Assembly (NCBI GenBank): GCA_026387935.1
Contig: JAPLKU010000019.1
Location: forward strand, 1-64,000
Direction: 5' to 3'
Origin: Gemmatimonadota bacterium
GTDB lineage: Bacteria > Gemmatimonadota > Gemmatimonadetes > Gemmatimonadales > Gemmatimonadaceae
DNA: 64,000 bases
Under the pieces are notes generated by a model. It was not told the origin of the DNA. It was given only the letters and a program-made list of their open reading frames with translations, and searched no databases. Of this stretch, positions 1,057-55,921 are shown piece by piece (the stretch's first letter is position 1; every line of letters starts with the position of its first letter). The position numbers and the translations under genes were made by a program.

Positions 1057-2270
1057 GGATACAACCAATACTTCCGCGTCAGCTCCGCGAACCGCTTGGC
1101 GTCCGCGTCCCAGCGCTCGAGCAGCTCGTCGACGGTGCCGTTCTGCACGGCCGCCCGCATGGCCGCCGTCCCCGCGAGGCGATCGACCGCAGACTCGCGC
1201 CAGACAAATTCGCTCGAATGCCGCGCATAGATCGCGCGCAACATCTTCAGCGCCACGGGCACGGGCCGCACGGCATTTCGGTCCGTGACATGCACCTTGA
1301 TCATCGGCGTCGGCTTGACCGTTGCCAGTTTGAATCCCGGCTGAATCACGCGCTCCGTCGCTTCGAACCGCACACCAGGCATCTTCGCAGCGTTCAGTTC
1401 GCCAACGATCTCCCTGATGTCATTCATCCAGGCGGCGCCGATGAGCGAAAAGGGCGACTCCGTGCCCCGCCCTTCGCTGATGTTCGCGCCTTCAAAGAGT
1501 ACGGTGCCGGGATAGAGCAGCGCCGCATCGAGATCCTTGATGTTCGGCGATGGGTTGACCCACTTGAGGCCCGTTTGGTCGTACCACATGTCGCGGCGGT
1601 ACCCCGACATGGGCACCACGCGAATGTCGGCCGTAATGCGATTCTCGCCTACGAGGAATCGCAGCAGTTCCCCGGGCGTCATGCCGTACCGATTGGTCAC
1701 GGCAAACTGGCCAACAAACGACGCGAAGGCCGTGTCGAGCACGACCCCGTCAACGCGGTCGGCGCGGATCGGGTCAGGGCGGTCGAGGACGATGAACGGT
1801 TTCTTCGCCGCAGCCGCAGAAAGCGCCATCGTCCACTGGAAGGTGTACTGGCGCGCGCCAACATCCTGAATGTCGTAGAGGAGCACGTCGACGTTCTTCA
1901 GCATGTCGGCCGTCGGCACTCGCGTGTTGTCGTAGAGCGAATAGATCGGAACGCCGGTCGCCGAGTCCACGGTGGACACCACTAGTTCACCGGCCTCGGC
2001 CACGCCGCGGAGTCCATGTTCCGGCCCGAAGAGCGCCGTGAGCTTCACGCCGGGCGTCTTGAAGAGAACGTCGATGCTGCTCGTGCCGTAGCGCGCGCGG
2101 CCGGAATGGTTCGTGATGATCCCGACGCGTTTGCCCCTGATCAGGTGCAGCGAATCGGTAACGAGAACCTCGATTCCCGGGCGGACACTACCGGCGGGCG
2201 CCGACACCGACTGGGCGGACGCGCAGGCGGCACATATGGCCGCGGCGGCGAGGAGGGACACGATTCGCAT
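1053..2270 (-). CDS. DUF1343 / NamZ-type exo-beta-N-acetylmuramidase, exported
   Basis: 405 residues with an N-terminal signal peptide (hydrophobic to AICAACASA, then QSVS). The motifs GKRVGIITNHSGR, LFGPEHGLRG, LLYDIQDVGARQYTF, VLDRPDP and LFEGANISEGRGTESPF are characteristic of DUF1343, the family of NamZ, which removes MurNAc from the non-reducing end of peptidoglycan fragments during wall recycling. Length matches the family (about 400). It is the first gene of a two-gene minus-strand operon with the phosphodiester glycosidase. The start is an ATG about 150 bp from the divergent deoC, so the two operons share a short divergent promoter region. The family assignment is strong; the precise substrate is inferred from the family. 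Confidence 0.9.
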   Translation of the reverse strand: MRIVSLLAAAAICAACASAQSVSAPAGSVRPGIEVLVTDSLHLIRGKRVGIITNHSGRARYGTSSIDVLFKTPGVKLTALFGPEHGLRGVAEAGELVVSTVDSATGVPIYSLYDNTRVPTADMLKNVDVLLYDIQDVGARQYTFQWTMALSAAAAKKPFIVLDRPDPIRADRVDGVVLDTAFASFVGQFAVTNRYGMTPGELLRFLVGENRITADIRVVPMSGYRRDMWYDQTGLKWVNPSPNIKDLDAALLYPGTVLFEGANISEGRGTESPFSLIGAAWMNDIREIVGELNAAKMPGVRFEATERVIQPGFKLATVKPTPMIKVHVTDRNAVRPVPVALKMLRAIYARHSSEFVWRESAVDRLAGTAAMRAAVQNGTVDELLERWDADAKRFAELTRKYWLYP

Positions 2271-5932: not shown

Positions 5933-7129
5933 TTACTGCACCGCGTTGATCATGTCGAAGATTGGCAGGTACATGGCAACCACCATGCCGCCGACGACGA
6001 CGCCGAGAAACACGATCATCAGTGGCTCGAGCAGTGCGAGCAGGCTGCTCACGGCGGTGTCGACTTCTTCATCGTAGAAGTCGGCGATTTTCGCGAGCAT
6101 TTCGTCGAGTCCGCCGGTCTGCTCGCCGACGGCAATCATGGAGATCACCATGGGCGGGAAGACGTTGGACTTGGCGAGCGGCGCGCTGATCGTATCGCCG
6201 CCAGCAATGGACGAACGGCTGGCCATGATCGCATCCTGGATCACGCGATTACCGGCTGTTTTTGCCGTGATTTCAAGGCCGTCCAGGATGCTAACGCCTG
6301 AGCTGATGAGCGTGCCGAGCGTGCGGGTAAATCGGCTGACGGCCGATTTGCGGATCACGTCGCCGAGCACGGGCACGTGGAGCAGCGCCTTGTCGACGTT
6401 GAGATGCCCCTTCGACGTGGCATAGTAGCGCTTGAAGGCGTGGAAGCCGAAGAAGCCGCCGAGGCCGAAGCCCCACCAGCCCTTCTTCAGGATTTCCGAC
6501 ATTATGATGACGATACGCGTCGGCAGCGGCAGGGCGAGGTTCACGCTGGCGAACATGTTCTGGAAGACGGGAATCACGAAAATGAGCAGCACGCTAATCG
6601 CGATGGCGGCCACGCTGAAAATGACGCCAGGGTAAATCATGGCGCCCTTCACCTTGCGCACGAGGGCGTCGTTCTTTTCCATGAACGTCGCCAGACGCAT
6701 CAGAATCGTGTCGAGAATACCGCCAGCCTCGCCGGCAGCGACCATGTTCACATACAGATCGCTGAACGCCTTCGGGTGCTTCGCCAGCGCGTCGGCCACC
6801 GCATGGCCCGATTCCACGTCAAACACGACTTGTCGCGTGACGGCAGAGAGCGCCTTGTTCTCGGTCTGCTTGGAGAGAATGTCGAGCGCCTGCACCAGCG
6901 GCAGGCCGGAGTTGATCATCGTGGAGAACTGTCGCGTGAAGATCACGACGTCGCGCATCGCAATCGAGCCCGCGGTTTTCTGCTTGGACTTGGAGGCTTC
7001 CTCGACCTTGACCACGTTGAGGCGGAGCCGTCGGAGCTGCTGAACCACATCTTCGCGGTTCGTCGCTTCGATCGTGTCAGTCTTGATCGCGCCTTTCTGG
7101 TCGCGCGCGGTATAGCTAAACGTCGGCAT
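5933..7129 (-). CDS. pilC: Type IV pilus / type II secretion inner-membrane protein PilC (GspF family)
   Basis: 398 residues with two T2SSF domains (about 65-190 and 270-390) and three long hydrophobic segments (about residues 165-190, 220-235, 370-390). The N-terminus MPTFSYTARDQKG, the segment FTRQFSTMINSGLPLVQAL, the central GVSILDGLEITAKTAGN and the C-terminal LEPLMIVFLGVVVGGMVVAMYLPIFDM are typical of PilC, the platform protein that couples pilus assembly and retraction ATPases to the fibre. Length matches the family (about 400). It sits 28 bases downstream of pilT on the same strand. No PilB or pilin lies in the window. Confidence 0.93.
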   Translation of the reverse strand: MPTFSYTARDQKGAIKTDTIEATNREDVVQQLRRLRLNVVKVEEASKSKQKTAGSIAMRDVVIFTRQFSTMINSGLPLVQALDILSKQTENKALSAVTRQVVFDVESGHAVADALAKHPKAFSDLYVNMVAAGEAGGILDTILMRLATFMEKNDALVRKVKGAMIYPGVIFSVAAIAISVLLIFVIPVFQNMFASVNLALPLPTRIVIIMSEILKKGWWGFGLGGFFGFHAFKRYYATSKGHLNVDKALLHVPVLGDVIRKSAVSRFTRTLGTLISSGVSILDGLEITAKTAGNRVIQDAIMASRSSIAGGDTISAPLAKSNVFPPMVISMIAVGEQTGGLDEMLAKIADFYDEEVDTAVSSLLALLEPLMIVFLGVVVGGMVVAMYLPIFDMINAVQ

Positions 7130-7157
7130 CAGTACCTCGGATTACAGATGGCGGTGA

Positions 7158-8333
7158 TCATCGACGTGCCGGCGCACCCGGTGGGCCTTTTGGTCCGGCA
7201 TGTGGCTCACCACGCGCGCCCGTATCGCCCTCGACCGGCGACTTGCCGATCATGCGCAGAAACTCATTCGGGTCGCCGGAGACGCGGAGGCATTCGTCCT
7301 CGTCCACCTCGCGACTCAGGTACAGTGCATAGAGCGCGTCGTTCATCGTCTGCATGCCGTGCTTCTTCCCCGACTGCATAGACGAGTACATCTGGTGAAC
7401 CTTGTCGTCGCGAATGAGCGCGCGAATCGCCGGCGTGATCACGAGAATCTCACACGCCATGGCACGACCGTTCCCGCTCTTTTTCGGCAGCAACGTCTGT
7501 GTGATGATGCCCTCAAGCACGAACGCCAGCTGCGCGCGCACCTGCGACTGTTGATGGCTCGGGAAGACGTCAATAATGCGATTGATCGCTTCGGCCGCGG
7601 AGTTCGTGTGCAGCGTCGCGAAGGCCAAGTGGCCCGTTTCGGCAATCGCCAGGCCGGCATGAATCGTTTCCAGATCGCGCATTTCGCCGATGAGCACGAT
7701 ATCGGGATCTTCACGGAGCGCATACTTGAGCGCGGAGGCAAACGACTTGGTGTCGGTGCCCACCTCGCGCTGATTGATGATGCAGTTCTGGTGCTTGTGA
7801 ATGAACTCGATCGGATCTTCGACCGTGATGATGTGGCCTTTTCGCTCCCGGTTGATCTTGTCGATCAGCGCCGCGAGCGTCGTGGACTTGCCCGAGCCGG
7901 TCGGCCCGGTGACGAGTACGAGCCCGCGCGGCTTTTCTGCCATCTTGATGACGGCGGCAGGCAGCTTGAGTTCGGCAGCCGTTTTGATCGCGATCGGGAT
8001 CTGGCGCATCACCATGGACACGCAACCGCGCTGTTTGAAGCAGTTCCCGCGGAACCGCGCGAGGTTCTGGATGCCGAACGAAAAATCGAGTTCGTCTTCC
8101 ATTTCAAAGCGCTTTTTCTGTTGCTCGGTCAGCACCGAGTACGCCACCTGCAGCGTGTCCTTCGGCGAGAGCTGGGAGGAGTTGCGCGATGACGTGATTT
8201 CGCCGTCAATGCGCATTTTGGCGCATTCGCCCGCCGTGATATGCAAATCCGACGCGCCCCGCTCGATCATTTCCTCGAGGAGCGCGCGAAGGTTGACGCC
8301 TTGTGATGAAGCGGCTGCAGCGGGAGCGGTCAT
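7158..8333 (-). CDS. pilT: Type IV pilus retraction ATPase PilT
   Basis: 391 residues. Hexameric secretion ATPase that powers pilus retraction. Walker A GPTGSGKST lies at residues 143-151, the Asp box ITVEDPIEFIH follows, Walker B is DPDIVLIGEMRDLETI, and the His box is GHLAFATLHTNSA. The PilT-specific AIRxLIRxxK signature appears as AIRALIRDDKVHQMYS. A proline- and glycine-rich tail of about 30 residues extends past the conserved core, slightly longer than typical PilT (about 345-370). It heads a two-gene operon with pilC. Confidence 0.95.
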   Translation of the reverse strand: MTAPAAAASSQGVNLRALLEEMIERGASDLHITAGECAKMRIDGEITSSRNSSQLSPKDTLQVAYSVLTEQQKKRFEMEDELDFSFGIQNLARFRGNCFKQRGCVSMVMRQIPIAIKTAAELKLPAAVIKMAEKPRGLVLVTGPTGSGKSTTLAALIDKINRERKGHIITVEDPIEFIHKHQNCIINQREVGTDTKSFASALKYALREDPDIVLIGEMRDLETIHAGLAIAETGHLAFATLHTNSAAEAINRIIDVFPSHQQSQVRAQLAFVLEGIITQTLLPKKSGNGRAMACEILVITPAIRALIRDDKVHQMYSSMQSGKKHGMQTMNDALYALYLSREVDEDECLRVSGDPNEFLRMIGKSPVEGDTGARGEPHAGPKGPPGAPARR

Positions 8334-9064: not shown

Positions 9065-10027
9065 CTACCTGAGCAGCGCCATCGCGACGTCGCCGACGAT
9101 CTTCAGCGATTTCGCGCTCACCCGGCCGATGTCGTCAGCCAACGTGTGATGCGCGTCGTAGTCGAGATCAATCACGTCCACGACCCTCAGCCCCGCCTTG
9201 AGCAACGGATAGTGGTCGTCGGTAATCGGATAGCTGCGCATATCCGGTTTGAAATACTGCTCATAGCCGAGTTCCTTCGCCGTCGACCAAACACGCTGCA
9301 CCACCTCCGGCGCGTTCTGAGCGGAATACATCTCCTGCGGCAGTTGCAGGTCGGCGTCGCCGATCATGTCCCAGAGTACGCCGAAGAGCGGCTTGTACCC
9401 GGGGCTGGGCAGATTCGCGGCGAAGTAGGTCGCGCCGATGAGGACATCGACGTCGGGCCCAAAGGTGCCATAGTCCTCACCATCGACGAAGAGCAGGTCT
9501 ACGCCAAACGTTGCTGGCGCTTTCTTGAGCGCGTCGGCAACGCCGAGGAGCAGCGCCACGCCACTCGCACCGTCATTCGCTCCGGGAATCGGCGTGGAAC
9601 GGTTTTCCGCCGCGGGATCGCTGTCGGCATGGGGCCGCGTATCCCAGTGCGTCACGTAGAGAATGCGCTCCGTGGCCTCCGGCTTGAAGCGCGCGAAGAT
9701 GTTGCGCATCGGAATCTGCTTTTTGTCGGCTAGCGTGTGCGTCCACTTCTGCTCAGTGACCGTTGCGCCATTGGCCTTGAGCAGCGCCACAATCCAGTCG
9801 CCGGTCTTCTGCCAGCCCGGCGTCCCGGGAACCCGCGGGCCGAACGCCACTTGCTGCTTCACATAGCTCATCGCGGAATCTGCATTGAACTCGGACGTGG
9901 CCCGGCCACCCGACGCGGCCTGCGCGTCGCCACCCTTCGCACACGCCCCAGCCGACGGAACGACGAACGCCGCGATGGCGGCGGTCAGGATGGCAGAGCG
10001 CGCAGTGAACGTAGAGATGGGGCTCAT
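9065..10027 (-). CDS. M28 family protein, glutaminyl-peptide cyclotransferase-like, exported
   Basis: 320 residues with an N-terminal hydrophobic export signal ending near PSAGACAKGG. Core motifs: THWDTRPHAD, PGANDGASGVALLL, LLFVDGEDYG and DLDYDAHHTLADDIG. This arrangement (HWDTRP, GANDGASG, DGEDYG) is typical of the M28 branch that includes bacterial glutaminyl cyclases, which bind one zinc and convert N-terminal Gln to pyroglutamate, rather than of two-zinc aminopeptidases. An aminopeptidase role cannot be excluded from sequence. Its ATG overlaps the SprA stop by 4 bases, so it is translationally coupled to a large surface protein. Many exported proteins here have Gln at the expected mature N-terminus, which fits cyclase activity. 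Confidence 0.75.
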   Translation of the reverse strand: MSPISTFTARSAILTAAIAAFVVPSAGACAKGGDAQAASGGRATSEFNADSAMSYVKQQVAFGPRVPGTPGWQKTGDWIVALLKANGATVTEQKWTHTLADKKQIPMRNIFARFKPEATERILYVTHWDTRPHADSDPAAENRSTPIPGANDGASGVALLLGVADALKKAPATFGVDLLFVDGEDYGTFGPDVDVLIGATYFAANLPSPGYKPLFGVLWDMIGDADLQLPQEMYSAQNAPEVVQRVWSTAKELGYEQYFKPDMRSYPITDDHYPLLKAGLRVVDVIDLDYDAHHTLADDIGRVSAKSLKIVGDVAMALLR

Positions 10028-13000
10028 CGTAACTCTCCGGCGAAGAACGAGATTTGCAGCACCGCCGACAGCACCATCTGGGTAAGCCGACGATTCAAGT
10101 TGTTATCAAAGGTGACAATCCGCGCGCCCTGCAGCGAAAAGGTCAGGTTGTCGGCGACGTCGGTGTCGGCGTTGAAGGTAATCGCCTCTCGACCGTTGTC
10201 GACCATTCGGCTGCGCAGCGCGCGGAGTCCAGTGGTCTCCACCCAGCTCGTGCTCGAGGTCTTCTGATAGGCAAAGCGGGCGCGCAGGTCACTCTTGAAC
10301 TCCCAGTCGCGCGGGAGCTTGAACGACCGCGTCACATCTCCGCCCAACTCGCGAGCCCACGCGTCAAGGAAACTTCCGGGCAGCGAGTCCACGCGGTGTG
10401 TCGAGGCGACGGAAAAGCCCGTGGTCAAGCCGCCGCGATCGTTCCAGACGACTGAGAGGCTGAGCGGATAGCTGAGCGATCGTCCCACGCGAAGGTCCGG
10501 CGGTCCGCCTGTGGATGACGGCAGCGCGCTGTGCTGCGCCGTCGCAACGAGCCGCGCGCTGGTCGTCACGCTCGTGAGGAACTGCTCGAGTGCATGCGGA
10601 CGAATTGTGCTCCGCAACGAAATGTCCGGTAACGTGACGAAATCGCCGTCCACCACGACCTGCGACTTGTCCGGCCTCCGCAGCCAGTTGCGCGACGCCA
10701 GGCGCTGCGTGCGCGCGTCGAGCGTGATGCCATAGGGCAGGCGCAGTCCAGAGGCGAGCGCGACCTGCGTGTTGCTCGAGGCGGTGGTGGCCAGAAACCC
10801 GTGATCGGCGAGAAAGGTTCCTTCGCCGCCAAGGCCGAATTGCAGGCCGTACCCAGGCGTCCGTGGCGTACCGTCGTACGACGACGAAATCGTCCGCGTG
10901 ACGGATAGTTCCAGCGGGACAAGCGTGCGGGTCAGTCGCGACAACACGGTCGTATCGCTCGTCCACGCATGCGCCGCGCGGGCCATGTCGAACGCCACCG
11001 CGCCATTGAACGATTGCGCCGCGTTTACTCGGCGCGGCAACCGGAGCGCACCAGTGGTATCGCCTTCGCGGAGGAGAATTCGCGAATTGGGATCGCGCAG
11101 CTGGCCGTAGGCCGTGCTGAACTCTGCCCGAGGACGGATCCAGCCCTGCAACTGCGGCGCAAGCGTGTACGACGTGGTCACCGCGCGATCACGCTCAAGC
11201 CCGGCGTCGACGCCCAGCAGTCTGGCGCGCTCGCTGGTCGCGGCGAGGGCCGTTGGGGTGGAGTCGCCGTAGTTCACGAGGTCGCGCGTGCTCGACACTT
11301 CCCAGCGCGCGCTGAGCGCGTCGAAGGGCTTCAGCTCGAGCGACGTCGCGTTCCGCCAGGCGTGCACGCGACCGTCGACGGTGCGCGCCGTATCACGCAC
11401 GGAACTCGCGGGATTCAGGAAGTTCGAACGCGACTCGTCCGACGAGGTATAGTTCCCGCTCGCGCGAAACGCCGCCGGTTGCAGCCGCGGCTTGGCGTCG
11501 TGCAAGGCCTGCACCAGTTCGAGATCGCCGAGCCAACCCGGTAACCGGTCCAGCGCGCGCGTCCACCAGCCGGGCATCGCACCCGCCGGCGACGTTCCGC
11601 CAATCGCGTAGTCGAGTCCGGCATTCAGGCGGCCTTGGTCCGCGACCTGAAACTCGGTGCGCGAGTTGGTCCCGCCCACACCGGCGGTGGCCGAGAGATT
11701 GTTGAGAAAAGGCGCGAGCATGCCGTCGGCCATCGGCGTCGCCCGGCGCACCGACACGGAGACGTTTGACGTGCGTTGCTGGGGCGTCCGCAACGCCGCA
11801 ATGTCTGATGCGCGAATGTCCGACCGCGACAGGAACTGCGGCGCCGAGGTGCCACGGGCCAGTGTTGCCGTCACCGGTAAGGCCCATCCCCACGCGCCGC
11901 CGACGAATTGGTCGAGCCGCAACGTGGTGCTCAACTCCATCAGTTCATCGGCCAGGTAGGCCGGCGCTTCCGTCAGTTGCCGGAAGTTCGGATCGCGGCG
12001 AGAGTAGTTGAATCGGAGCTGCGCCACATCGCCGAAGTTCGCCTGCGCGCCAATCTGTCCCGCATAGCCAGGGGTGCTGACGACGCCGCTGAGCCGGATG
12101 TCGTCCACCCACACTTCGAGGGTGTCGCCGGGAATAATGCGCGCGGTGCCACCGACGGAGTCCACACGGACCATGCCAATAGCGAGTTCCTGCACCGCCG
12201 AAAGATTTGGCGGGCTCACGACCGGATCGGCCGCGTACACGATGTACCCCTCGGAGCAGGCCGCGTAACGTCGCGAGATCTGGCCGATGGGCATGGCGCT
12301 CTGCGCAATAAGCGCGAGATCGGCGCCCGTGCACGCGATGGAATCGGGACGGTTCTGCAGGTACGCGTTTTCGAGCTGTGCGCGCAGCGCATAGAGCTTG
12401 TCGAAGTTCACGCGCACTTCCGGCAGCCAGGCGGCCTGCGTCGTCCCCGAACTCGCCGGAGTGCGATAGGCGTAGAAGCTGTTCGGGTCGCGCCCGATCT
12501 TCACGAAGAACTGCAACTCACCGCCCTGGCCCCATCCATTGCCGCGGCCGCGTGCCCAGACGCGCAGCTCCTGATACTGTCGAAAGTTCTTGGCGCCTTC
12601 CGGGAACTTGTAGAACGCTTCCGCCCGCTCCAGTGGCTTGAGCGCCGTGGCCGTCAGGCGAAGCGCGCGCTCGTTGACCAGGATCCGCTGATTCTCGAGC
12701 CCCGTGAGTTGGCGGTCGGCCTCGTTCACCACGCCAGGCGGCGATTGGTAGCCGAGCGCGCTGAGTGAATCGAGCGTCCCGACGGTGCCGGCAAACACGA
12801 GTCCACGTCCGGTACGCTCCCCGGCGATGCCGGTCAGCGCACGATCGGCCCGCTTGAGCCAGCTCGCGCCCACGAGGCGGAGGCGCGACACCACGATCTG
12901 CGAGAACTCCTGGTCGAGCAGTCCGTCGCCGGAGATCATCGTGAGCCGCAGCGCGCGTACACGCTGAATGGACGGCCCGCCATTGATCGTGTCGGCCGGC

Positions 13001-16000
13001 GCCGCGAACGGAAGACGCACAAGGACCCAGCAGAGCTTCGGCGCTGCAGCACCGGCCGAATCGTTCGGCGCGGCGCGGCAGCCGCCAACGCGCGTCCAGG
13101 TCTTGGCGTCGGACAAATCCGCCACATAGCGGAAGAGTCGCTCCTGCTCGCGCTGGCCCGAGTCGAAGTTGAGGACATTGTCGCCGTCGATGTCCCACTC
13201 GTCGAGCCGTCCATTCTGCACCGTGCAGTTCGTGCGCGTATCGCCGAGGCGCGCGAGCTGCGCGTTGCCACGTGAACACATCGGAGCGTTGGTCGCTATG
13301 CCGCCGCTGGACGGCGTCGTGACCAGCAAACGCGGCACGACGTCGCCGGGAAGTCCGGTGTCGTTCTTTTCCTGATTGAAGGCGCGAGAGAAGGCATCGC
13401 GTTCCGATTGCAGGGTGTCACGGCCGGCGATCGCCCGTCCCGCCCAGACCGAATCCGGCGCCGTGGTCGAGCCCGAGACCGTCAGCGTTGTCGGGACAAT
13501 GGCCACGGCGTTTTCACTGACATCGCCGATATCGACCACAAACATCGGATTGCGGCGGCGGCGTACCACCGATGTATCGACGAGCGCCCAGAACTCGATC
13601 GCCTCCTTGCCAGTCAGGTTGACGCCCGACGCCGCACCGAGCGTCTGCCGAATGGAACGCCAACGTCGGCCCGGGGCGGCACCGGTGATCTTCCACCGGT
13701 ATTTCCTTGCCGCCTTGTCGTACGCGCCACCAACACTGAGCGGATAGAGCGTCAGCCAGAGCACCGGCTCCTGCTGATCGATTCCCGCACCGACGAGCTT
13801 GGTGAGCGGATCGATTTCCTGCAAAGAAAACCGCGGAACCGAGTCGCGCACATTGATGCCGTTGCTCTGCCACGCCAGCGTCGCCGCATGCGAGAGATCG
13901 AGCACTCCTGCGCCACCGACGCGCGCCGCAAGAATCCGCCCGAGCGCGGGCTGACTCGAGGGAGACCAGAGGGGATCGGACAGCGCGAGCGCAAACGCGC
14001 CATCGCCCTCAAACGATTCGAGGTACGCCTGCCCCGAGGCACCGGCCTGTGGGCGACTGGTGGCAAACTCCGCCTCCAAGCGAATCCGCGAAGGCGACAC
14101 TGGATCGCGACCGGTCATGCGCTTGGCTAGCTGCGCAAAAGCCGGCACCTCAAACCCGTACGATCCACTGACGCCCGCGACAATGGCCGACGCATTGGCA
14201 TAGCCAAGTTGCGGGCGCGTGAACGACGAATGCTGGCGCTGCCCGATGGCCACGAAGTTCAGCTCACCGTTCGAAAAGGCGAACTGCGACGCGATGCCGA
14301 CAATCGTCGTCGGTGTGGTGACAAAGAGCGGTGTCTCCTCGAATCGCACCGTCACCTGACGCGGCCGTGAGAAGAGTGAATCGGAACGCAGGAGCGTCAC
14401 GCGCCCGAGGTCGTAGTCCACCACGTAGTCGGTGTTGCGCCGCAGCAGCGTGCCGTCGTCCAGCACGATGTGTTCCGACATCGGTTTCAGCTGCGTCGAG
14501 CCGAGTGAAAAGCTGGTCATGTCGGCGCCCGCTTCCGTCTCAAACTGCAGGCGCAGCCGGTACACCGGCTGCGGATGGAGCGTCGAGTTGAGATCCTCAT
14601 TCGGCGTGCGATAGATCGCGTCGTTCGACGGATTCAGCGGCGAGCCAACCAGTCCCGCTTGAGCAAATGGCTGAAGCGACGGAAAAATCACGAACCCCTC
14701 GCGAACCACGCTCGGCGCCGCAGACCCGGCAAGCGAGAGCACCGGGTCGCCGCGCCGCGGCCAGACACGACCTTCGGCGTCAAATGCGGTTGGCGTGCCG
14801 AGCTTGGCCATGCCGAAGAGTTCGAGAAACGTGTTTTCGCGCCCACCAACCGGCTTTTCCTGATCGAAAGTGCCACCGGCGACCACGGTGAGCTGCACCG
14901 ATTCGCGTCGCACCTCGTCGCCGCCTACCCGATAGGCCGCGCGAATCTCGCGAAAAAACGCGGCGTCGCCCGGCCGCACGTTTGGATCCCAGAGCAGGTT
15001 GGCGAACTGTTCCCGCGAATCGACGCGAGCGATGTCGGGCGTGCCGCCGGTTGTCGCGATCACCGAATCGCGCCCGCCGATGCGGACGGTGTACGCGACC
15101 ACCAGCCGTTCCTTGTTCGGATCGAGCGGCTGGGTGAGCATCACCCAGAGCTGCGACGGATCAACGTAGAAGTCGACATTCTCGCGCAGCGGCTCGTAGA
15201 TCGGCCCTTTTCGCGACGACGGGTCGCCGTTCAGGCGAAACTGCGGGCCATTCGGATTCGCCGGCTGCCCGCCGATGAGCAGGCGATAGAGCGAAATGCG
15301 CGACGGCCGTAGGGAGTCCGGAAGCTGGGCGGCCAGCTGACGCAGCCGACTTCCATTGAGGATGTCCACGTTCGGATATCCGGCGAGCCGGCGTGGATCC
15401 ACTGTGAAGAAGAAGCGCCGTGCTTCCATCTGGTAGTCGTCAATCGCCAGCGTGCCTGGCTGGCCGCCATTCCCGCCGACCACAAACACCCGGTCGTGCT
15501 GCACGATGCCCTTCTGTTCGGCGGCGATGGTGCGCACCGTGAGGCGTCCGAACTTTGCCGCGGCCTGTATACCGTAGTTGCCCTGCGGGATGCCGCTCGA
15601 AATAAACCGCGAGCGCGGCAGATCGAGCGTGACGTTGCCGACGTCAATACGCTGCAGCCACTCCGTCGGCTTGCCGAGGTACGAGAGGCCGATGTTGTTC
15701 GACCCGTCGTATTCACGGCGCGAGTCGTAGTCCACCTGGGTCTTGAATCGTTCGGCAAAGGTGCCGCCCGTCTTGAGCGTGAACTGAAACTCGGGAATCT
15801 GTTGCCAGGGCGAGTTGCACTGGGCATTCAGTGTCGCGAGGCTCGCGATGCACCGATCGTTGCGGGTGCGTTCGTTCTTGAACTGAAACTGGCCGGTAAA
15901 GCGCAGTCCGAGGTCGCTACCGGGGCCGAAGAGCTTGGCGAATACCGAGTCGTCCTTCGCCCGGACGGAATCAGGCCTCGAGCGCACGGTGTCGGTGGCC

Positions 16001-16089
16001 GCAGGCCGCTGCGCGTGCGCGGTTGCCCCACCCGGCAATGCCACGGCGAGGGCCAGCAAGCTTGCGATCAGAATCCGAAAGAATCGCAC
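10024..16089 (-). CDS. sprA: SprA-family giant outer-membrane protein
   Basis: About 2,021 residues from the GTG at 16089, which gives a clean signal peptide (FFRILIASLLALAVALPGGATAHA, then QRP); an upstream TTG at 16125 would add 12 residues and bury the signal. The N-terminal region (DLGLRFTGQFQFKNERT, then IDVGNVTLDLPRSRFISSGI and FGRLTVRTIAAEQKG) and the long C-terminal run of alternating beta strands ending SAVLQISFFAGELR match the SprA/Sov family. In Bacteroidota, SprA is the 36-strand type IX secretion translocon of gliding bacteria; homologues occur outside that phylum with unproven function. Length is in the family range (2,000-2,400). The stop overlaps the M28 gene. Confidence 0.85.
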   Translation of the reverse strand: MRFFRILIASLLALAVALPGGATAHAQRPAATDTVRSRPDSVRAKDDSVFAKLFGPGSDLGLRFTGQFQFKNERTRNDRCIASLATLNAQCNSPWQQIPEFQFTLKTGGTFAERFKTQVDYDSRREYDGSNNIGLSYLGKPTEWLQRIDVGNVTLDLPRSRFISSGIPQGNYGIQAAAKFGRLTVRTIAAEQKGIVQHDRVFVVGGNGGQPGTLAIDDYQMEARRFFFTVDPRRLAGYPNVDILNGSRLRQLAAQLPDSLRPSRISLYRLLIGGQPANPNGPQFRLNGDPSSRKGPIYEPLRENVDFYVDPSQLWVMLTQPLDPNKERLVVAYTVRIGGRDSVIATTGGTPDIARVDSREQFANLLWDPNVRPGDAAFFREIRAAYRVGGDEVRRESVQLTVVAGGTFDQEKPVGGRENTFLELFGMAKLGTPTAFDAEGRVWPRRGDPVLSLAGSAAPSVVREGFVIFPSLQPFAQAGLVGSPLNPSNDAIYRTPNEDLNSTLHPQPVYRLRLQFETEAGADMTSFSLGSTQLKPMSEHIVLDDGTLLRRNTDYVVDYDLGRVTLLRSDSLFSRPRQVTVRFEETPLFVTTPTTIVGIASQFAFSNGELNFVAIGQRQHSSFTRPQLGYANASAIVAGVSGSYGFEVPAFAQLAKRMTGRDPVSPSRIRLEAEFATSRPQAGASGQAYLESFEGDGAFALALSDPLWSPSSQPALGRILAARVGGAGVLDLSHAATLAWQSNGINVRDSVPRFSLQEIDPLTKLVGAGIDQQEPVLWLTLYPLSVGGAYDKAARKYRWKITGAAPGRRWRSIRQTLGAASGVNLTGKEAIEFWALVDTSVVRRRRNPMFVVDIGDVSENAVAIVPTTLTVSGSTTAPDSVWAGRAIAGRDTLQSERDAFSRAFNQEKNDTGLPGDVVPRLLVTTPSSGGIATNAPMCSRGNAQLARLGDTRTNCTVQNGRLDEWDIDGDNVLNFDSGQREQERLFRYVADLSDAKTWTRVGGCRAAPNDSAGAAAPKLCWVLVRLPFAAPADTINGGPSIQRVRALRLTMISGDGLLDQEFSQIVVSRLRLVGASWLKRADRALTGIAGERTGRGLVFAGTVGTLDSLSALGYQSPPGVVNEADRQLTGLENQRILVNERALRLTATALKPLERAEAFYKFPEGAKNFRQYQELRVWARGRGNGWGQGGELQFFVKIGRDPNSFYAYRTPASSGTTQAAWLPEVRVNFDKLYALRAQLENAYLQNRPDSIACTGADLALIAQSAMPIGQISRRYAACSEGYIVYAADPVVSPPNLSAVQELAIGMVRVDSVGGTARIIPGDTLEVWVDDIRLSGVVSTPGYAGQIGAQANFGDVAQLRFNYSRRDPNFRQLTEAPAYLADELMELSTTLRLDQFVGGAWGWALPVTATLARGTSAPQFLSRSDIRASDIAALRTPQQRTSNVSVSVRRATPMADGMLAPFLNNLSATAGVGGTNSRTEFQVADQGRLNAGLDYAIGGTSPAGAMPGWWTRALDRLPGWLGDLELVQALHDAKPRLQPAAFRASGNYTSSDESRSNFLNPASSVRDTARTVDGRVHAWRNATSLELKPFDALSARWEVSSTRDLVNYGDSTPTALAATSERARLLGVDAGLERDRAVTTSYTLAPQLQGWIRPRAEFSTAYGQLRDPNSRILLREGDTTGALRLPRRVNAAQSFNGAVAFDMARAAHAWTSDTTVLSRLTRTLVPLELSVTRTISSSYDGTPRTPGYGLQFGLGGEGTFLADHGFLATTASSNTQVALASGLRLPYGITLDARTQRLASRNWLRRPDKSQVVVDGDFVTLPDISLRSTIRPHALEQFLTSVTTSARLVATAQHSALPSSTGGPPDLRVGRSLSYPLSLSVVWNDRGGLTTGFSVASTHRVDSLPGSFLDAWARELGGDVTRSFKLPRDWEFKSDLRARFAYQKTSSTSWVETTGLRALRSRMVDNGREAITFNADTDVADNLTFSLQGARIVTFDNNLNRRLTQMVLSAVLQISFFAGELR

Positions 16090-16250
16090 GTCGTGGCAGA
16101 CCCGGGCCCGGGAACGGGGTATCAACTATACTTCTAAGGTCGGGCGTGCTCCCTGAATACACCAACCGGTCCGTGGAATATACGGGACGGTCGTAGCCCT
16201 ACAACCCTTTGTCACGTAGGGAGTTCGGCCCTCCGTCGGAACCGCGAATC

Positions 16251-17861
16251 GTGAGAACACTCAGCCGATACGTCCTGCGAGAGCATCTCGGGCCACTGGT
16301 GTTCGCCATGTCGGCCCTGACCTCGCTGCTGCTGCTGAACTACATCGCCAAACAGCTGCCACAGCTCGTCGGAAAAGGGCTTCCTTGGGATGTGGTCGTC
16401 GAGTTCGTGGTGCTATCGCTGCCGTTCACGATCGCGATGACCCTCCCGATGGCAGTGCTCGTGGCGACGCTGCATGCGTTCAGCCGGCTCGCCGCGGACA
16501 GCGAAATCACGGCGTTCAAGGCGAGTGGGTTGTCACTGCCTCGCATTATGGCTCCCGTTGTATTCGCCGGGCTTATCCTCTCGCTGGCGATGGTCTGGTT
16601 CAACGACCAGGTAATGCCAGCCGCGAACTACGCGCTCGCCACCCTCGGCAACGACATCGCCCGCAAGAAGCCGACATTTGCGTTGCGTCCGCAGGTGATC
16701 AACCAGGTCGCGCCGGGAAGCGCAATATTCCTGCGCGCCGGGCATCTCGAGGGCGGTTCGAGCGAGATGCGCGACGTCACGATCTACGATTTTTCCGATG
16801 CCGCGCATCGCCGAACGATTCGCGCGGACTCCGGCCACATCGAGCTCTCCCCCGACGGGCGCGACCTGATCCTGACGCTCAAGACTGGTTTCATGAACGA
16901 ACTCAGCCGCACGGAACCGGCTCGCCTCGAGCGAGTGTTTTTCACGACGAACCTCGTGCGCGTGCGCGGAATTGGGAATGATCTCGAACGCAACACTCGA
17001 GGTGGTGAAAAGAGCGACCGGGAGCGCACAGTTTGCGAGCTCCAGGCCCAGCTCAACAACGCCGTCCGAACGCGCGACAGCATCTTCGCAGGAATCAAGT
17101 CGCTCGACCCACCCGCCGCGCGCGCACTCGGCGCCCGTACGGCCGTGGTCGGGAGCGGCGGCGCCTTCTGCGCGGCAAAGCGGCTCTTCCGCGTGAAGAC
17201 CGCGGAGGCGGCCACGGTCGCCGCTCTCGCGGCACAAGCGGGCGGACCTCCGCCGCAGGCGCCCCCCCAGGCTCCGGCCCAAGCGCCGGCACAAGCGCCG
17301 GTTCGCACCGATTCGGCGCCGAAGTCATCGGCCGGGATGCAGGTCGTCACGCAGAATCCTGCGGCGGCGATTCCTCCATCGGCGGGAATTGTGCGCACGC
17401 CAGCCGCAGGCGCGGATGAACCGCTCGCCCGGCCGGTCCTGATCGAATCCATGAAGCTTCAGCTCGCCGGCGTGGACGCCATCGTCGCCGGCAACCAAGT
17501 GGAAATCGAAAAGAAGTTTGCGATCGCCACGGCGTGCGTGATTTTTGCGCTCCTTGGCGCGCCGATCGCCTTCCGTTTTCCTCGCGGCGGAGTCGGGCTC
17601 ACCATTGGCGTCAGTCTCGCGGTGTTCGGTGTGTACTACTGCGGCCTCCTCGTTGGCGAAGAGCTCGCCAGGCGAGGCTATGTGCATCCGTTCATAGCGA
17701 TGTGGGGGACCAATGCCATTCTGCTGTTGATCGGCGTCGTCCTCACGGCGCGACTGGGACATGAGGGCACCACGCACCGCGGCAGCGAATTCACGGACCA
17801 GCTTGGACGACTCGCCGATCAGATTCGCGCACGCTTCGGCCGCAAGACGGTGGCCGGCTAA
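16251..17861 (+). CDS. lptF: LptF/LptG family lipopolysaccharide export permease (first copy)
   Basis: About 536 residues from the GTG at 16251 (start MRTLSRYVLREHLGPL); an in-frame TTG at 16209 is possible but neither has a convincing ribosome site. Three N-terminal transmembrane segments, a periplasmic jellyroll region, then three C-terminal segments (IATACVIFALLGAPIAF, GLTIGVSLAVFGVYYCGLL, MWGTNAILLLIGVVL), the YjgP/YjgQ fold. With LptG and an LptB ATPase it extracts LPS from the inner membrane. Between the domain halves is an unusual insert of about 120 residues with a Pro/Gln/Ala-rich tract (PPPQAPPQAPAQAPAQAP), making it much longer than the ~360-residue norm. It overlaps lptG by one base (TAATG). 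Which of the pair is F or G is assigned by order only. Confidence 0.85.
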   Translation: MRTLSRYVLREHLGPLVFAMSALTSLLLLNYIAKQLPQLVGKGLPWDVVVEFVVLSLPFTIAMTLPMAVLVATLHAFSRLAADSEITAFKASGLSLPRIMAPVVFAGLILSLAMVWFNDQVMPAANYALATLGNDIARKKPTFALRPQVINQVAPGSAIFLRAGHLEGGSSEMRDVTIYDFSDAAHRRTIRADSGHIELSPDGRDLILTLKTGFMNELSRTEPARLERVFFTTNLVRVRGIGNDLERNTRGGEKSDRERTVCELQAQLNNAVRTRDSIFAGIKSLDPPAARALGARTAVVGSGGAFCAAKRLFRVKTAEAATVAALAAQAGGPPPQAPPQAPAQAPAQAPVRTDSAPKSSAGMQVVTQNPAAAIPPSAGIVRTPAAGADEPLARPVLIESMKLQLAGVDAIVAGNQVEIEKKFAIATACVIFALLGAPIAFRFPRGGVGLTIGVSLAVFGVYYCGLLVGEELARRGYVHPFIAMWGTNAILLLIGVVLTARLGHEGTTHRGSEFTDQLGRLADQIRARFGRKTVAG

Positions 17862-18958
17862 TGTCGTTGATCCGGCCGCTCGACAAGTACGTCCTGCGCG
17901 AGTTTCTCGGGATCTTCGCCGCGGCGGCGCTTGGTTTTCCGATCCTCGTCATCGTCCTCGACATGGCCGAGAACCTGGGCAAATACCTGCAGCTGAAGTT
18001 GCCGATGATGGACATCGCGCAGGCCTATTTCTACGGCACGGCGGAGACGATGTTCATGATCCTCCCGGCGGCCGTGCTCTTCGCCACGGTGTTTTCGATC
18101 GGTGCGTTCACGCGCCATGCTGAGATCACGGCGGCCAAGGCCTCCGGCATCAGCTTTCACCGCTTTATTCTGCCCATCGTGTTCGGCGCCCTGGTCTCGA
18201 TGGTACTCGGCCTCGCGATCGGTGCGATGATGCCGGAGGCGAATGCTCGGCGCGACGCCTTACTCAAGGAGCGACAGCGCCGGAATATCGAAGCGCGCCC
18301 CAACTTCACCTATGTGAGCGAAGACCAGCGGGTGTACAAAATCGGGTTTGCCGATGCACTCCAGAACACGTTGCAAGACATTGAGATTGAACGACGCGGG
18401 GCCAGCGCGGCGTTTCCGAGCTACACGATTTACGCGCGCGACGCTCGTTTTACGCGCACCACGCGGCCGACGAGTCCAGACTGGACGCTCAGGGACGGTG
18501 TCGTGCACATCATACCGGACGACGAGACGAACTACGCCATTATGTTCGATTCGCTGCGCGACATGCGGTTTCGCGAGCCACCGCGCACGCTGATGGCCGA
18601 CCCCCGCGCGCCCGACGAAATGGGATTTACGGACTTGGGCGTGTTCATCAAGCAGATGGAGCGGTCGGGCACCGACGTGAACAAGTTCCGCACCGCGCGG
18701 ATGCTGAAGCTCGCCATTCCAGTCACCTGCGTGATCATCATGCTCTTCGGCGCACCGCTGGCGACGAGCACGCAACGCAGCGGACCGGCGCTCGGCGTGG
18801 GCATCAGCTTGGCGACGACCGTGATTTTTCTGATGCTGGTGCAACTCACCCAGGCGATCGGCGACAAAGGCCTCATGATGCCGGAACTCGCGGCCTGGAT
18901 ACCCTCTGCGGTGTTTGGAATCCTGGGGACGGTATTGCTCGTACGGGTACGGACATGA
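17861..18958 (+). CDS. lptG: LptF/LptG family lipopolysaccharide export permease (second copy)
   Basis: 365 residues, the standard family length. The N-terminus LIRPLDKYVLREFLGIF is followed by transmembrane segments around 20-45, 60-80 and 105-125 (FILPIVFGALVSMVLGLAIGA), a periplasmic jellyroll (VYKIGFADALQNTLQDIEIER to NYAIMFDSLRDMRF), and three C-terminal segments (IPVTCVIIMLFGAPLAT, GVGISLATTVIFLMLVQL, AWIPSAVFGILGTVLLV). It forms the heterodimeric permease with the preceding gene. The start overlaps the previous stop (TAATG). No lptB is present in the window. Confidence 0.9.
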   Translation: MSLIRPLDKYVLREFLGIFAAAALGFPILVIVLDMAENLGKYLQLKLPMMDIAQAYFYGTAETMFMILPAAVLFATVFSIGAFTRHAEITAAKASGISFHRFILPIVFGALVSMVLGLAIGAMMPEANARRDALLKERQRRNIEARPNFTYVSEDQRVYKIGFADALQNTLQDIEIERRGASAAFPSYTIYARDARFTRTTRPTSPDWTLRDGVVHIIPDDETNYAIMFDSLRDMRFREPPRTLMADPRAPDEMGFTDLGVFIKQMERSGTDVNKFRTARMLKLAIPVTCVIIMLFGAPLATSTQRSGPALGVGISLATTVIFLMLVQLTQAIGDKGLMMPELAAWIPSAVFGILGTVLLVRVRT

Positions 18959-20770: not shown

Positions 20771-23700
20771 CTAGAAGCTGTACCGCATCGTGACCTGCAT
20801 GCTGTAGAAGTTTGACGTGGTCGTCTGCGACCGGAAGAACGCGCCGTTGTAACTGTTGTACGGCTGCGTGTTGTTCATGACCGACTGGTTGAACGTCACG
20901 ATCGGAACCGAGGTGTTGAGCGGACCTGCCGTGCGCCCGGTTTGCGACAGGATCGCCTGCTGCGGGAAGCCGCTGAGCGTGGCGCCGCGGATCTGACCCC
21001 ACTCGCGGTTGAGCAGGTTCATGAAGTTGAAGATGTCGAGCTGGGCGGTGAGGCGCTGGCCCATGAAGCCGGGGAAGCGCTGGCGCACGGAAATGTCGGC
21101 CCGGTTCTGCCAGGGCGTCGTGCAGGTGTCGCGCTTCATGATGCCGCCGCGCTGCTTGTCGAGGCACTTGTTCGCTGAGATGAACTGATCGAACGCCGCT
21201 TCCTGCGCCGCGGCGGTGATCGTACCCGAAGCCGCAAACTTCCAGCGGTTCGCGTCCGCGAGACCCGTGGGGAGGTAGATGGCGTCGTTGGTGTTGATGC
21301 CGTCGCCGTTCAGGTCACCACCGGTGACGTGGTACGTGATCGGGAAGCCCGATTGTGCCTCGTAGTACCAGGTGAGGTCTGTCGTCTTCCACGGCATCGT
21401 GTACGAACCAAACATCATGATGCGGTGCGGGCGCTCGAACGCCGAGGTCGTCGGCGTGTCGTCGGTCTGCAAGCCTTCGTAGTTACGCCCGTTCTGGAAG
21501 TTCGAAACGGCGCGATCTGAGGTGAGGCTCTGCACGTCCTTCGACTGCATGTACGTGTAGGCCAGCGTCACTTCGAGATCGTTGTCGAACTTCTTCTTGA
21601 GCTGGCCCGTCAGCGTGTAGTTGTAGTCCTTGCGCTGATTGGTCACGTAGTAGAGGCCTTGGCTGAACGCGACCGCCGGGCTGCCGATGAAGTTGATGAC
21701 CTTTTGGCCGGAGTTCGTGACGGCGCCGGTCGCGCTGATCGTGTCAGCGTAAAGCGTGCGGCCGTTGAGATCCGTGTACGGCTTGCCGTTCACCGTCCGA
21801 GGTCCCTTGAGGTTCGCGTCAACGATCATTACGCCGTTGATGGCCTTCCGATACAGCGCCTCGAACGTGAAGGTCGTGTTGAACGGCAGCTGGCGATCGA
21901 AGCCGAGCGAGCCGACGGCGTACTGCGGATACTTGAAGTTCGGGTCGGTCGCGTTGATTACCGTCGTGCCGGCAAGGCCCGGCGCCGGCTCTGGCTGGCC
22001 TGCGCAGGACTTGGGCAGCTTCGTCACGTCGATCGTGAACGCCGGTGTCGCGGCGTTCGTGCACGACAGCGACACGTAGCCGAGGCCGCTCGTGCTGTAC
22101 GGGTTGCCGATAAGAATGAACGGCGGCGGCGCGGTGAAGATGCCGAGCGTACCACGCACCTGGTTCTGGCGGTCACCGGTCGGATCCCAGTTGAAACCAA
22201 GACGGGGTGACCAGAGGATCTGCGTCTTCGGCGTCGCGTCGGTCCGAATCGGCGTCAGGCCGGCCTTGGTGAACTGCGCCATGACCGAGTCGTTGCGCGG
22301 CGGCTTGTCGAGGAAATTCGGCATGTCGGCGCGGAGGCCGTACGTGAGCGTCAGGCGCGGGCTGACTTCCCACTTGTCCTGGGCGTACAGCGACATCTGC
22401 TGGACGGTGAACACCGCCGCGCCAGCGCCGCCGTTGATGTAGCCAACCGCGTAACCGTTCGGCGTGCCGGCCTCGAGCGCGGTCATGCTCGGGAACTTCC
22501 AGACGCCCAGCGCCTGCTGCGGGAAGTTGTTGTAGATGTATGTGCGCTCGTAGCGGCCACCGAGCAGGTACGTGTGATCGCCCTTCGGGATGCTGAAGTT
22601 GTCAGCGATTTCGACGATGTTTTCCTTCAGCGCGTTGCCCGGCGAGAACTGCTCGGAACCGAACGTCGCTGCAATCGTGCCGCCCGACGTACGCGTGACC
22701 GGCAGGCTCATTTCGGGGAGGAGCTGGCCGTCGAGGAGTCGTTCGTCCTTGATTGTGTTGTAGCCGGCGAACAGCTCGTTCGTCTTGCCGCCGCTGAACG
22801 CCGAATAGAGGTGCAGCGTGGAGGAGTAGTTCGTGTTCTGGCTGTTGAAGCCGTTCGACGTAAAGCGGAAACCCGTGCTCTGCACGGTGGGGTTGGCATT
22901 GTACGCGCTGTTGCTGCGGCTGAAGCTCGTGTTCTTGGCCGTGTTGTAGAGCTGGCGGAACACAAGACGGTTGTTGTCGTTGACGAGGAAGTCGAGACGC
23001 GCCGACAGGTTCTGGAGCGGATTATTGATCGACACCTTGCCACCGTCGCCGACGTCCGCACCCTTCGCCTTCATTGCCGTGATAATGCGCGTAATCGTGT
23101 CGGCGAAGACGAGTCCGGCATCGTTGGCGCTCGCGCCGATATACGTGCCGGCGGCCGGGCTCGTGCGCTGCTGGAAGTCCGGCGCGATGAAGATGTGCAG
23201 CCGGTCCTTGATGATCGGTCCGCCAAGGTAGAAGCCGAACTGCGAGACCTTGAGCTTGCCGTCCTTGATGAACTGCTCGGGTGAGGCGAACTGCGGATCA
23301 CGGTAGGTGTAGCTCGCACCGCCGGTCCAGGTGTTCGTGCCGTTCTTGGTGATCATGTTGACCGCCATGCCGGCAAAGTTGCCCTGCCGCACGTCGGCCG
23401 GCGCCATCAGGACCTGGAACTCCTTGACGGCGTCGAGCGAAATAAGGCGCCCGTTTGTTGCCGAGCCCGGGACGCCGCCGCTGGAGTTGAGATTGAACCG
23501 GTCATTCTGGTTCGCGCCGTCAATCGTGTAGTTGTTGTAGCGATTGTACGCGCCGCCGGCTGACGGACCGCCGGTGGTGTTGTTCTGCACCTGCGGGACG
23601 AACTTCACGGCCTGCGTCACATCGCGGCCGAGCGTCGCGATGCGGCTCAGCTGGCCGCCGTTGATCGTCGTTTCCGCACCGGTACGCGAGGACGTGAACG

Positions 23701-24088: not shown

Positions 24089-24236
24089 GTCAAACATTCC
24101 CGCGTGAATGATATGGAAAAATGTACCAACAAAAGATAGGGCTACCCAGCGAACTCCACAACGGAGCGACAACGGCTTTTCGGACTCGTGACACGATGTT
24201 GACCTTGCGCGCGGCACGCGGCAAATCGCTGGTCGA

Positions 24237-52234: not shown

Positions 52235-52576
52235 ATGATGCGCATGCCCCGCGTACTGGTGATCCCGTTCGTGATTGCACTTTCACTCATCCCGTTCGGC
52301 CGCACGCTCGCACAGGGCACGCTCGCACAGGGCACGCGAGCCTCGGTGGGGCCAACCATCGCCAAGGCGGCTGTCGGCGTGCATGTTGATCGCGGCTCCG
52401 CCATGACGCCGGCGGCCCTGCCGAAGCGACAGGAAGACCGAAAAAACGTCGCCATGATGATCGTCGGCGGCGCGGCATTGATCGTCGGCGCCATCATTGG
52501 CGATACACCGGGTACGATCATCATGGTTGGCGGCGCAGGCGTGGGCCTGTACGGTCTCTACAAGTACCTCGAGTAG
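52235..52576 (+). CDS. Small exported protein with C-terminal hydrophobic hairpin
   Basis: 113 residues. Signal peptide (VLVIPFVIALSLIPFGRTLA, then QGT), a short variable region, and a Gly/Ile-rich hydrophobic hairpin (VAMMIVGGAALIVGAIIGDTPGTIIMVGGAGVGLYGLYKYLE). No recognised family, though such glycine-zipper-like segments occur in small envelope proteins. A 15-bp duplication (52302-52331) repeats TLAQG at the cleavage site. Confidence 0.65.
   Translation: MMRMPRVLVIPFVIALSLIPFGRTLAQGTLAQGTRASVGPTIAKAAVGVHVDRGSAMTPAALPKRQEDRKNVAMMIVGGAALIVGAIIGDTPGTIIMVGGAGVGLYGLYKYLE
52302..52331 (+). repeat. 15-bp tandem duplication at a signal-peptide cleavage site
   Basis: Two exact copies of GCACGCTCGCACAGG (52302-52316, 52317-52331), coding (TLAQG)2. 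Confidence 0.9.
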
Positions 52577-55748: not shown

Positions 55749-55921
55749 GTGGAAGCTCCATCGTTGGGGTGTAGGCCTAGAGTGCAGCCCCACGCAGTCC
55801 GCGTCAATGCGGGCGAGCCTAGCTCGCGCCCGGTCTCACTCAAGGCCGACCAGCGCCGCCCACCCAATCTGTGCGAGGAGTTCCTCGTGCCGATGGGAAT
55901 GACGCAGTATCGCGTGGCCAA

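What the first reader, a model, noticed from the sequence alone, without database searches (positions are those of the whole stretch)
9065..16089. Glutaminyl-cyclase-like gene coupled to SprA, with Gln at +1 of nine predicted signal-peptide cleavage sites
In Bacteroidota, signal-peptidase I products often start with Gln, which a glutaminyl cyclase converts to pyroglutamate. Here the predicted mature N-terminus is Gln in the phosphodiester glycosidase (LGA/QQ), NamZ (ASA/QS), SprA (AHA/QR), TonB receptor (ASA/QI), fused barrel domain (ASA/QA), small exported protein (TLA/QG), S9 peptidase (AAA/QG), DUF4440 (AFA/QA) and peroxiredoxin (CQA/QT). The M28 gene with a cyclase-like motif set overlaps sprA by 4 bases. 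This suggests the same Q-rule operates here, linked to the SprA locus.
Basis: partly seen in the sequence, partly recalled or inferred. Interest (0 to 1): 0.72.

Follow-up and report, generated by a model that had tools for sequence, protein, structure and literature searches.

The report
Glutamine rule for exported Gemmatimonadota proteins
In this bacterium and its relatives most exported proteins seem to begin with glutamine once the export signal is cut off, and nearly all of the relatives carry one of two unrelated enzymes that cap such ends, a rule so far described for another phylum.

Summary
All nine quoted sites with Gln at +1 are in the window (one, inside a long frame, is doubtful), and the M28 gene overlaps sprA by 4 bases. 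The M28 protein is a type II glutaminyl cyclase (QC): its best solved-structure matches are Bacteroidota QCs, D152-E184-D185-D220-H294 are invariant, it has a lipobox, and a tree separates it from other M28 proteins. A signal-peptide model whose site choice ignores +1 finds Gln there in 14 of 20 predictions of the same genome outside the window; pooled, 34/54 in QC-II genomes, 31/53 in type-I-QC-only genomes, 6/33 in proteobacteria. Of 200 Gemmatimonadota genomes 183 carry QC-II or the unrelated type I QC (114 II only, 47 I only, 22 both, 17 neither), the alternation reported for Bacteroidetes. The SprA link is positional, not obligatory: relatives at the same locus have both genes, QC alone or SprA alone. 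So this is the Bacteroidetes Q-rule extended to a second phylum; its main papers do not mention Gemmatimonadota, and one says 'exclusively' Bacteroidetes. Open: some genomes show the Gln pattern without a recognisable QC. Pyroglutamate itself is untested.

The parts
9065..10027 (-). Type II (animal-type, M28 fold) glutaminyl cyclase, predicted lipoprotein (..SAGAC, Cys29)
   Evidence: PDB best hits PgQC 6qql E 5e-57 and other bacteroidal QCs; PF04389; invariant D152/E184/D185/D220/H294; tree; AF2 model pLDDT 89, listed Foldseek and VIA rows are QCs or bacteroidal proteins since reannotated as QCs
10024..10027 (-). 4-base overlap of the sprA stop and the QC start
   Evidence: ORF coordinates
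10024..16089 (-). SprA (T9SS-type outer-membrane translocon homologue); signal peptide ..GGATAHA/QRPAATD
   Evidence: TIGR04189 E 7.1e-179; site AHA/Q
16209..18958 (+). lptF and lptG, divergent from sprA; fixed flank of the locus
   Evidence: PF03739 in both; order kept in relatives
5933..8333 (-). T2SSF (PilC-like) and PilT-like genes; fixed flank on the other side
   Evidence: PF00482, PF00437; order kept in relatives
20771..24097 (-).
   Evidence: blind prediction, motif
1053..2270 (-).
   Evidence: blind prediction, motif; one search placed the site 5 residues later
1..1056 (-).
   Evidence: blind prediction, motif; one search placed the site 2 residues later
52235..52573 (+). Small exported protein, FGRTLA/QGTLA
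   Evidence: blind prediction, motif
52659..54971 (+).
   Evidence: blind predictions, motif
55230..55793 (-).
   Evidence: motif present; chose an earlier site in the same protein
63678..63930 (+).
   Evidence: motif at 63732 in a frame of 88 codons; not called by the blind models; ends approximate
40480..41478 (-). ASA/QA inside a long frame after a CDP-alcohol phosphatidyltransferase domain: doubtful member of the list

Best explanation
The gene encodes a membrane-anchored, periplasm-facing type II glutaminyl cyclase. Signal peptidase I cuts exported proteins after [A/L/V]-x-A and leaves glutamine as the first residue of most of them; the cyclase closes that glutamine into pyroglutamate, so the mature N-terminus is blocked against aminopeptidases. 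The rule is general for exported proteins of Gemmatimonadota, not special to SprA. Lineages use either this type II enzyme or the unrelated type I (beta-propeller) enzyme, both predicted lipoproteins. Shown: the Gln+1 excess, enzyme family, residues, lipobox, distribution, synteny. Inferred: catalytic activity, that the exported proteins are its substrates, and protection as the purpose (from PgQC work).
For: QC identity. Gln+1 excess with site choice blind to +1: G000 14/20 outside the window; pooled QC-II genomes 34/54, QC-I-only genomes 31/53, proteobacteria 6/33, Prevotella 9/18; Fisher II vs proteobacteria p 5e-5, I vs proteobacteria p 3e-4. Distribution in 200 genomes: 114 II only, 47 I only, 22 both, 17 neither (Fisher p 5e-15 per genome; 0.007 per genus over 91 genera). 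Lipobox by pattern in 75 of 79 QC-II examined (the other 4 also have a Cys at that place) and, read by eye, a lipobox-like Cys near the domain start in 15 of 15 QC-I fetched. The QC-I of G017 matches solved QCs (3mbr E 2e-70). Bacteroidetes show the same alternation of two mostly lipoprotein QCs under a nearly universal Q-rule (PMC5837995, passages and sections 17-18), and QC activity is essential and stabilises exported proteins in P. gingivalis (PMC10653852, abstract and passages).
Against: No enzyme assay or N-terminal mass data. Two aromatic residues that line the PgQC site are not kept in the window protein: Trp298 is His293 here (Trp in part of the phylum) and Trp193 has no counterpart (my reading of the alignment). 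Genomes with neither QC still show the Gln excess (17/33 pooled; QC+ versus none p 0.42), so the Gln pattern does not depend visibly on a recognised QC. The predictor is home-made and its counts shift with training and threshold; Prevotella scored only 9/18 where the literature gives about 70% for the phylum, so values are rough. The proteobacterial base rate by this method is high (18%).
Confidence: 0.84

Rival explanations
1. The M28 protein is an ordinary two-zinc aminopeptidase and the Gln+1 excess is unrelated to it.
For: NCBIfam's only weak hits are aminopeptidase and carboxypeptidase models; M28 proteins are abundant here (24 PF04389 matches in G000); Trp298 is not conserved.
Against: All eight best PDB sequences (E 5e-57 to 3e-24) are QCs or proteins since named QCs; the best aminopeptidase is at 1e-7. 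The 50 fold matches shown are of that kind. Asp185 replaces the usual Glu, as in PgQC. In the tree it groups with Bacteroidota QCs apart from M28 relatives of the same phylum (branch 97/96; bootstrap not settled, 4 outgroup rows). Genomes without it mostly have a type I QC.
Confidence: 0.07
2. The cyclase is a dedicated partner of SprA: the operon exists so that SprA (or its cargo) is capped.
For: 4-base overlap; an upstream frame of SprA size directly before QC in 45 of 80 named loci, 7 more cut by a contig end; SprA itself starts with Gln.
Against: Same locus without SprA but with QC in 3 of 3 g2 genomes read (G127, G004, G071), and with SprA but without QC in 2 of 2 'neither' genomes read (G033, G138). 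Gln+1 in the SprA-less G127 is 6/9. The QC-I gene of G017 is far from sprA. Gln+1 proteins are of many kinds and scattered over the genome. No TIGR04183 sorting domain in G000.
Confidence: 0.06
3. Gln at +1 is only a preference of this phylum's signal peptidase or a composition effect, with no enzymatic cyclisation.
For: Genomes with neither QC still show it (17/33); an unusual -3 Leu (0.29 of trained sites) suggests a lineage-specific peptidase preference; N-terminal Gln can also cyclise spontaneously (PMC5837995 passage).
Against: Gln is 3-5% elsewhere in the same mature ends; shuffles of the c-window that keep its composition give 7.9 proteins with a permissible site before Gln against 18 of 22 observed in G000. 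The alternation of two unrelated, lipid-anchored QCs over the phylum is not expected if cyclisation were irrelevant.
Confidence: 0.1

Closest known systems
Bacteroidetes Q-rule with Porphyromonas gingivalis QC (PG2157; Bochtler 2018 PMC5837995; mBio 2023 PMC10653852)
   Same: Gln at +1 in most predicted SPI substrates; lipoprotein type II QC with Asp as third zinc ligand; two alternative QC types over the phylum, few genomes with both, both mostly lipoproteins
   Different: Another phylum, which neither paper mentions (0 occurrences of 'gemmatimon' in the main texts); QC overlaps sprA; -3 Leu frequent; Trp298 and Trp193 replaced in the window protein; no pyroglutamate data
Type I (plant-type) QC, PF05096, e.g. 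Xanthomonas campestris QC 3mbr
   Same: Same reaction by annotation; in this phylum predicted lipoprotein like QC-II; stands alone in 47 of 200 genomes
   Different: Unrelated beta-propeller fold; not found in the window's genome
Other bacterial type II QCs with solved structures (Fimbriiglobus ruber 7d1b, Acidobacteriales 7d18)
   Same: Same fold and family, outside Bacteroidota
   Different: More distant (about 30% identity); whether those phyla follow a Q-rule was not tested

Membership tests
Bacterial type II glutaminyl cyclase (PgQC-like) | Closer to QCs than to M28 aminopeptidases in sequence and tree | tested here: met
Bacterial type II glutaminyl cyclase (PgQC-like) | Single-zinc ligands Asp149/Asp183/His299 and catalytic Glu and Asp (PgQC; PMC7948796, passages) | tested here: met
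   D152, D185, H294, E184, D220 invariant in 26 aligned rows incl. Prevotella and in 34 rows; equivalence read from the alignment
Bacterial type II glutaminyl cyclase (PgQC-like) | Site-lining Trp298 (HsTrp329) and Trp193, shared by bacteroidal QCs but not part of the metal/catalytic set | tested here: inconclusive
   His293 in the window (Trp or His within the phylum) and no Trp193 counterpart: absent in the window protein, but not required by any assay known to me
Bacterial type II glutaminyl cyclase (PgQC-like) | QC fold | tested here: met
   AF2 pLDDT 89; PgQC 6qql_A Z 42.9, rmsd 1.3, 276 aligned
Bacterial type II glutaminyl cyclase (PgQC-like) | Lipoprotein signal | tested here: met
   Lipobox-like motif in 75 of 79 relatives by pattern; window ..SAGAC
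Bacterial type II glutaminyl cyclase (PgQC-like) | Cyclises N-terminal Gln | not testable with these tools
   needs an assay
Q-rule (Bacteroidetes sense) | Majority of SPI substrates with Gln at +1 (Q-value above 48% in 332 of 334 Bacteroidetes species, PMC5837995) | tested here: met
   G000 15/22; 82 of 140 predictions at threshold 8 over 11 genomes; own predictor, sampled stretches. Three genomes fall below 48% by the same model (G154 5/11, G138 4/9, G157 3/9)
Q-rule (Bacteroidetes sense) | A QC in nearly every genome | tested here: met
   183 of 200 genomes, 79 of 91 genera; 12 genera have neither
Q-rule (Bacteroidetes sense) | Pyroglutamate at mature N-termini | not testable with these tools
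   needs mass spectrometry
T9SS-coupled locus | SprA with T9SS C-terminal sorting-domain cargo in the same genome | tested here: not met
   TIGR04183: 0 matches in G000 at E <= 1e-3; present in 2 of 8 genomes searched

The most novel reading that the evidence does not exclude
About twelve of 91 sampled Gemmatimonadota genera have neither known QC although the Gln+1 pattern persists in those looked at (8/12 in G033). They may carry a third, unrecognised glutaminyl cyclase, so that the capping of exported proteins is the conserved trait and the enzyme is replaced again and again.
Probability: 0.25. Interest if true: 0.75.

Novelty: new member of a known kind. Interest (0 to 1): 0.57.

Why it matters
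The Q-rule has been called exclusive to Bacteroidetes (PMC10653852, Importance statement as shown). Finding it across Gemmatimonadota, with the same two interchangeable enzymes, makes it a trait of a wider group or one that arose twice, and gives an independent phylum in which to ask why it is kept. G017 has the size of the cultured type strain Gemmatimonas aurantiaca T-27 (identification recalled), so N-terminomics is feasible. It also helps annotation: the gene would otherwise be named M28 peptidase or aminopeptidase, and exported proteins of this phylum can be given better mature N-termini.

Tried and rejected
A first hand-built signal-peptide scorer chose sites too early and gave G000 16/55, G017 6/31 and G127 4/21; it was replaced by an explicit n/h/c model and then a self-trained version. 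Thresholds 12 and 16 left almost nothing. In all of them the choice of site ignores +1; only a later filter against a hydrophobic stretch after the site sees those residues. In the model Gln is neutral at -3 and -1 too, which moves some sites one residue past the Gln and lowers the count; in the model Gln is penalised at -3, at -1 and in the core, as charged residues are. Retraining with extra loci gave G000 14/22, QC-II 33/51, QC-I 30/50 and none 16/35, but that Gemmatimonadota-trained model hardly recognises control signal peptides (Prevotella 0/3, E. coli 1/5, pSymB 1/8), so it is not used for the control comparison. Pooled loci around QC genes: named QC-II loci 30/42 (related genes, not independent), QC-I loci 2/4, both 2/6.

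Idea that Gln+1 would vanish where QC-II is missing: rejected. Those genomes mostly have QC-I and keep the pattern, and even genomes with neither keep it. A search for a third M28 QC with the QC-II profile in 15 of the 17 'neither' genomes (G087 and G170 left out; G017 and G030 added for comparison) found only larger M28 proteins (best E 3e-14, G091) and nothing in G033. Part of the 17 must be assembly gaps (e.g. G170 and G087, whose genera otherwise have QC-I).

Weak matches left out of the QC counts: 26 genomes with only generic M28 hits (E 6e-7 to 9e-4) for QC-II, 4 with weak PF05096 hits; 4 short fragments (G012, G171, G069, G199) were counted as QC-II. Foldseek/VIA lists were filled by QCs; absence of aminopeptidases from the 50 rows shown is not evidence.

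Literature: searches for Gemmatimonadetes, Gemmatimonas or Gemmatimonadota with pyroglutamate, glutaminyl cyclase, glutamine cyclotransferase or SprA found no paper on this subject; only the held open-access library was searched, with 8 of 10 searches used.

Full report
What is there. The window belongs to a Gemmatimonadota MAG (G000, 2.80 Mb, 28 contigs; nearest named relatives all Gemmatimonadetes). At 9065-10027(-) lies a 320-residue M28 protein whose start overlaps the stop of sprA (10024-16089, -) by four bases. The nine quoted Gln sites are all present; one, at 40908, is inside a long frame behind a CDP-alcohol phosphatidyltransferase domain and should be held doubtful.

The enzyme. Sequence search of the PDB puts bacteroidal QCs first (6qql PgQC E 5e-57, 4fuu BtQC 2e-54); a human QC-like protein and an aminopeptidase follow at about 1e-7. 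In an alignment of the window protein with 24 Gemmatimonadota relatives and a Prevotella QC the ligands and catalytic residues given for PgQC (PMC7948796, passages read) are invariant, including the Asp that replaces the usual Glu as third ligand (D185). Two site-lining Trp residues are not kept in the window protein. A lipobox precedes the domain in 75 of 79 relatives by pattern, and the other four have a Cys in the same place. A tree of 18 domains separates the window protein, its relatives and three Bacteroidota QCs from four other M28 proteins of Gemmatimonadota (97/96), though the bootstrap had not settled and one outgroup row is long. The AF2 model (pLDDT 89) aligns to PgQC at Z 42.9, rmsd 1.3, 276 residues.

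The rule. SignalP was not available. I wrote a signal-peptide model with n, h and c regions whose choice of site does not look at +1, and which drops lipoproteins; gene calls were also my own. At threshold 8 Gln stood at +1 in 15/22 predictions in G000, 6/9 in G127, 5/11 in G154, 8/12 in G073 (all QC-II); 16/24 in G017, 12/23 in G056, 3/6 in G068 (QC-I only); 8/12 in G033, 4/9 in G138, 3/9 in G157, 2/3 in G032 (neither); Prevotella 9/18; E. coli 2/14; S. meliloti pSymB 4/19. Pooled values and tests are; outside the window G000 gives 14/20. The cruder, untrained model gives lower numbers, in the same direction for most: G000 23/49, G127 6/17, G154 4/29, G073 5/21, G017 12/28, G056 13/33, G068 3/11, G157 2/12, G032 3/9, G138 1/16, G033 8/18, Prevotella 9/27, E. 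coli 3/22, pSymB 4/27; there G154, G157 and G138 do not clearly exceed the controls. Most E. coli sites called at threshold 8 agree with mature ends that I recall (OmpA, MalE, LamB, ModA, AppA); at least two others look like membrane-protein false calls. In Gemmatimonadota the trained model uses Leu at -3 in 0.29 of sites.

The two enzymes. Over 200 genomes of at least 90% completeness, QC-II was counted in 136 and the unrelated QC-I (PF05096) in 69; 114 II only, 47 I only, 22 both, 17 neither. By genus: 54 II, 12 I, 13 with both types in the genus, 12 neither. Genera g9 and g34 hold genomes with both and a genome with QC-I alone, as expected for replacement in progress. The QC-I of G017 matches solved QCs at E 2e-70. 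All 15 QC-I genes fetched (of 69 genomes) have a lipobox-like Cys near the domain start, read by eye. Only plain Fisher tests were made; no phylogenetic correction. Bochtler et al. 2018 describe the same picture in Bacteroidetes: animal- or plant-type QC, 574 and 507 species, only 63 with both, and mostly lipoproteins (sections 17, 18 and passages). So the pattern here is a repeat in a second phylum and not a new principle. That paper also reports single high-Q species elsewhere, such as Ignavibacterium album 77%.

SprA. The order T2SSF, PilT, (small gene), QC, SprA, then divergent LptF, LptG, MlaE, MlaD is found with SprA missing and QC beside LptF in G127, G004 and G071; with QC missing and SprA between LptF and PilT in G033 and G138. 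QC and SprA are thus neighbours that come and go separately. In 45 of 80 named loci a frame of SprA size ends just before QC, 7 are cut by a contig end, 19 have a smaller frame and 9 none (size only, identity not tested one by one). No T9SS sorting domain was found in G000.

Mechanism. Sec export, cut by signal peptidase I after [A/L/V]-x-A, free N-terminal Gln, closure by a lipid-anchored QC on the periplasmic side, blocked N-terminus. The first steps rest on sequence; closure and its benefit are inferred from PgQC, which is an inner-membrane lipoprotein (PMC5837995 passages) and is essential through its activity (PMC10653852 abstract and passages). The 24 M28-family matches in G000 fit the view that capping protects against aminopeptidases, but this is inference.

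What stays open. Genomes with neither QC keep the pattern. Assembly gaps explain some; three genera have two out of two genomes without either (g54, g70, g76). No QC-II-like M28 was found there. Further sampling was not possible.

Noticed in passing
G017:C1:3015965-3021550 and other g4/g21 genomes: SprA of genus g4 and of g21 scores 680-1250 bits against the T9SS SprA model; most other Gemmatimonadota listed score about 180-650. Possibly a separate, more Bacteroidota-like SprA.
   Followed up: no
sampled stretches of 11 Gemmatimonadota genomes: Leu is nearly as common as Ala at -3 of predicted signal-peptidase I sites (L 0.29, A 0.33), unusual for Gram-negative signal peptides.
   Followed up: partly
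G003 (family f10) and G154: 27 matches to the T9SS C-terminal sorting domain TIGR04183 in G003 and 2 in G154, none in the other six genomes searched.
   Followed up: no
G000 whole genome: 24 matches to the M28 peptidase family in a 2.8 Mb genome, presumably a large set of exported aminopeptidases.
   Followed up: no
L090: A contig labelled Candidatus Poribacteria KatS3mg115 carries a Gemmatimonadota-like QC-II (56% identity) behind a SprA-size frame: likely misbinned or mislabelled.
   Followed up: no
window 8480-8986 (-): Small protein without Pfam match between PilT and QC, partly conserved at the same place in G004 and G071.
   Followed up: no
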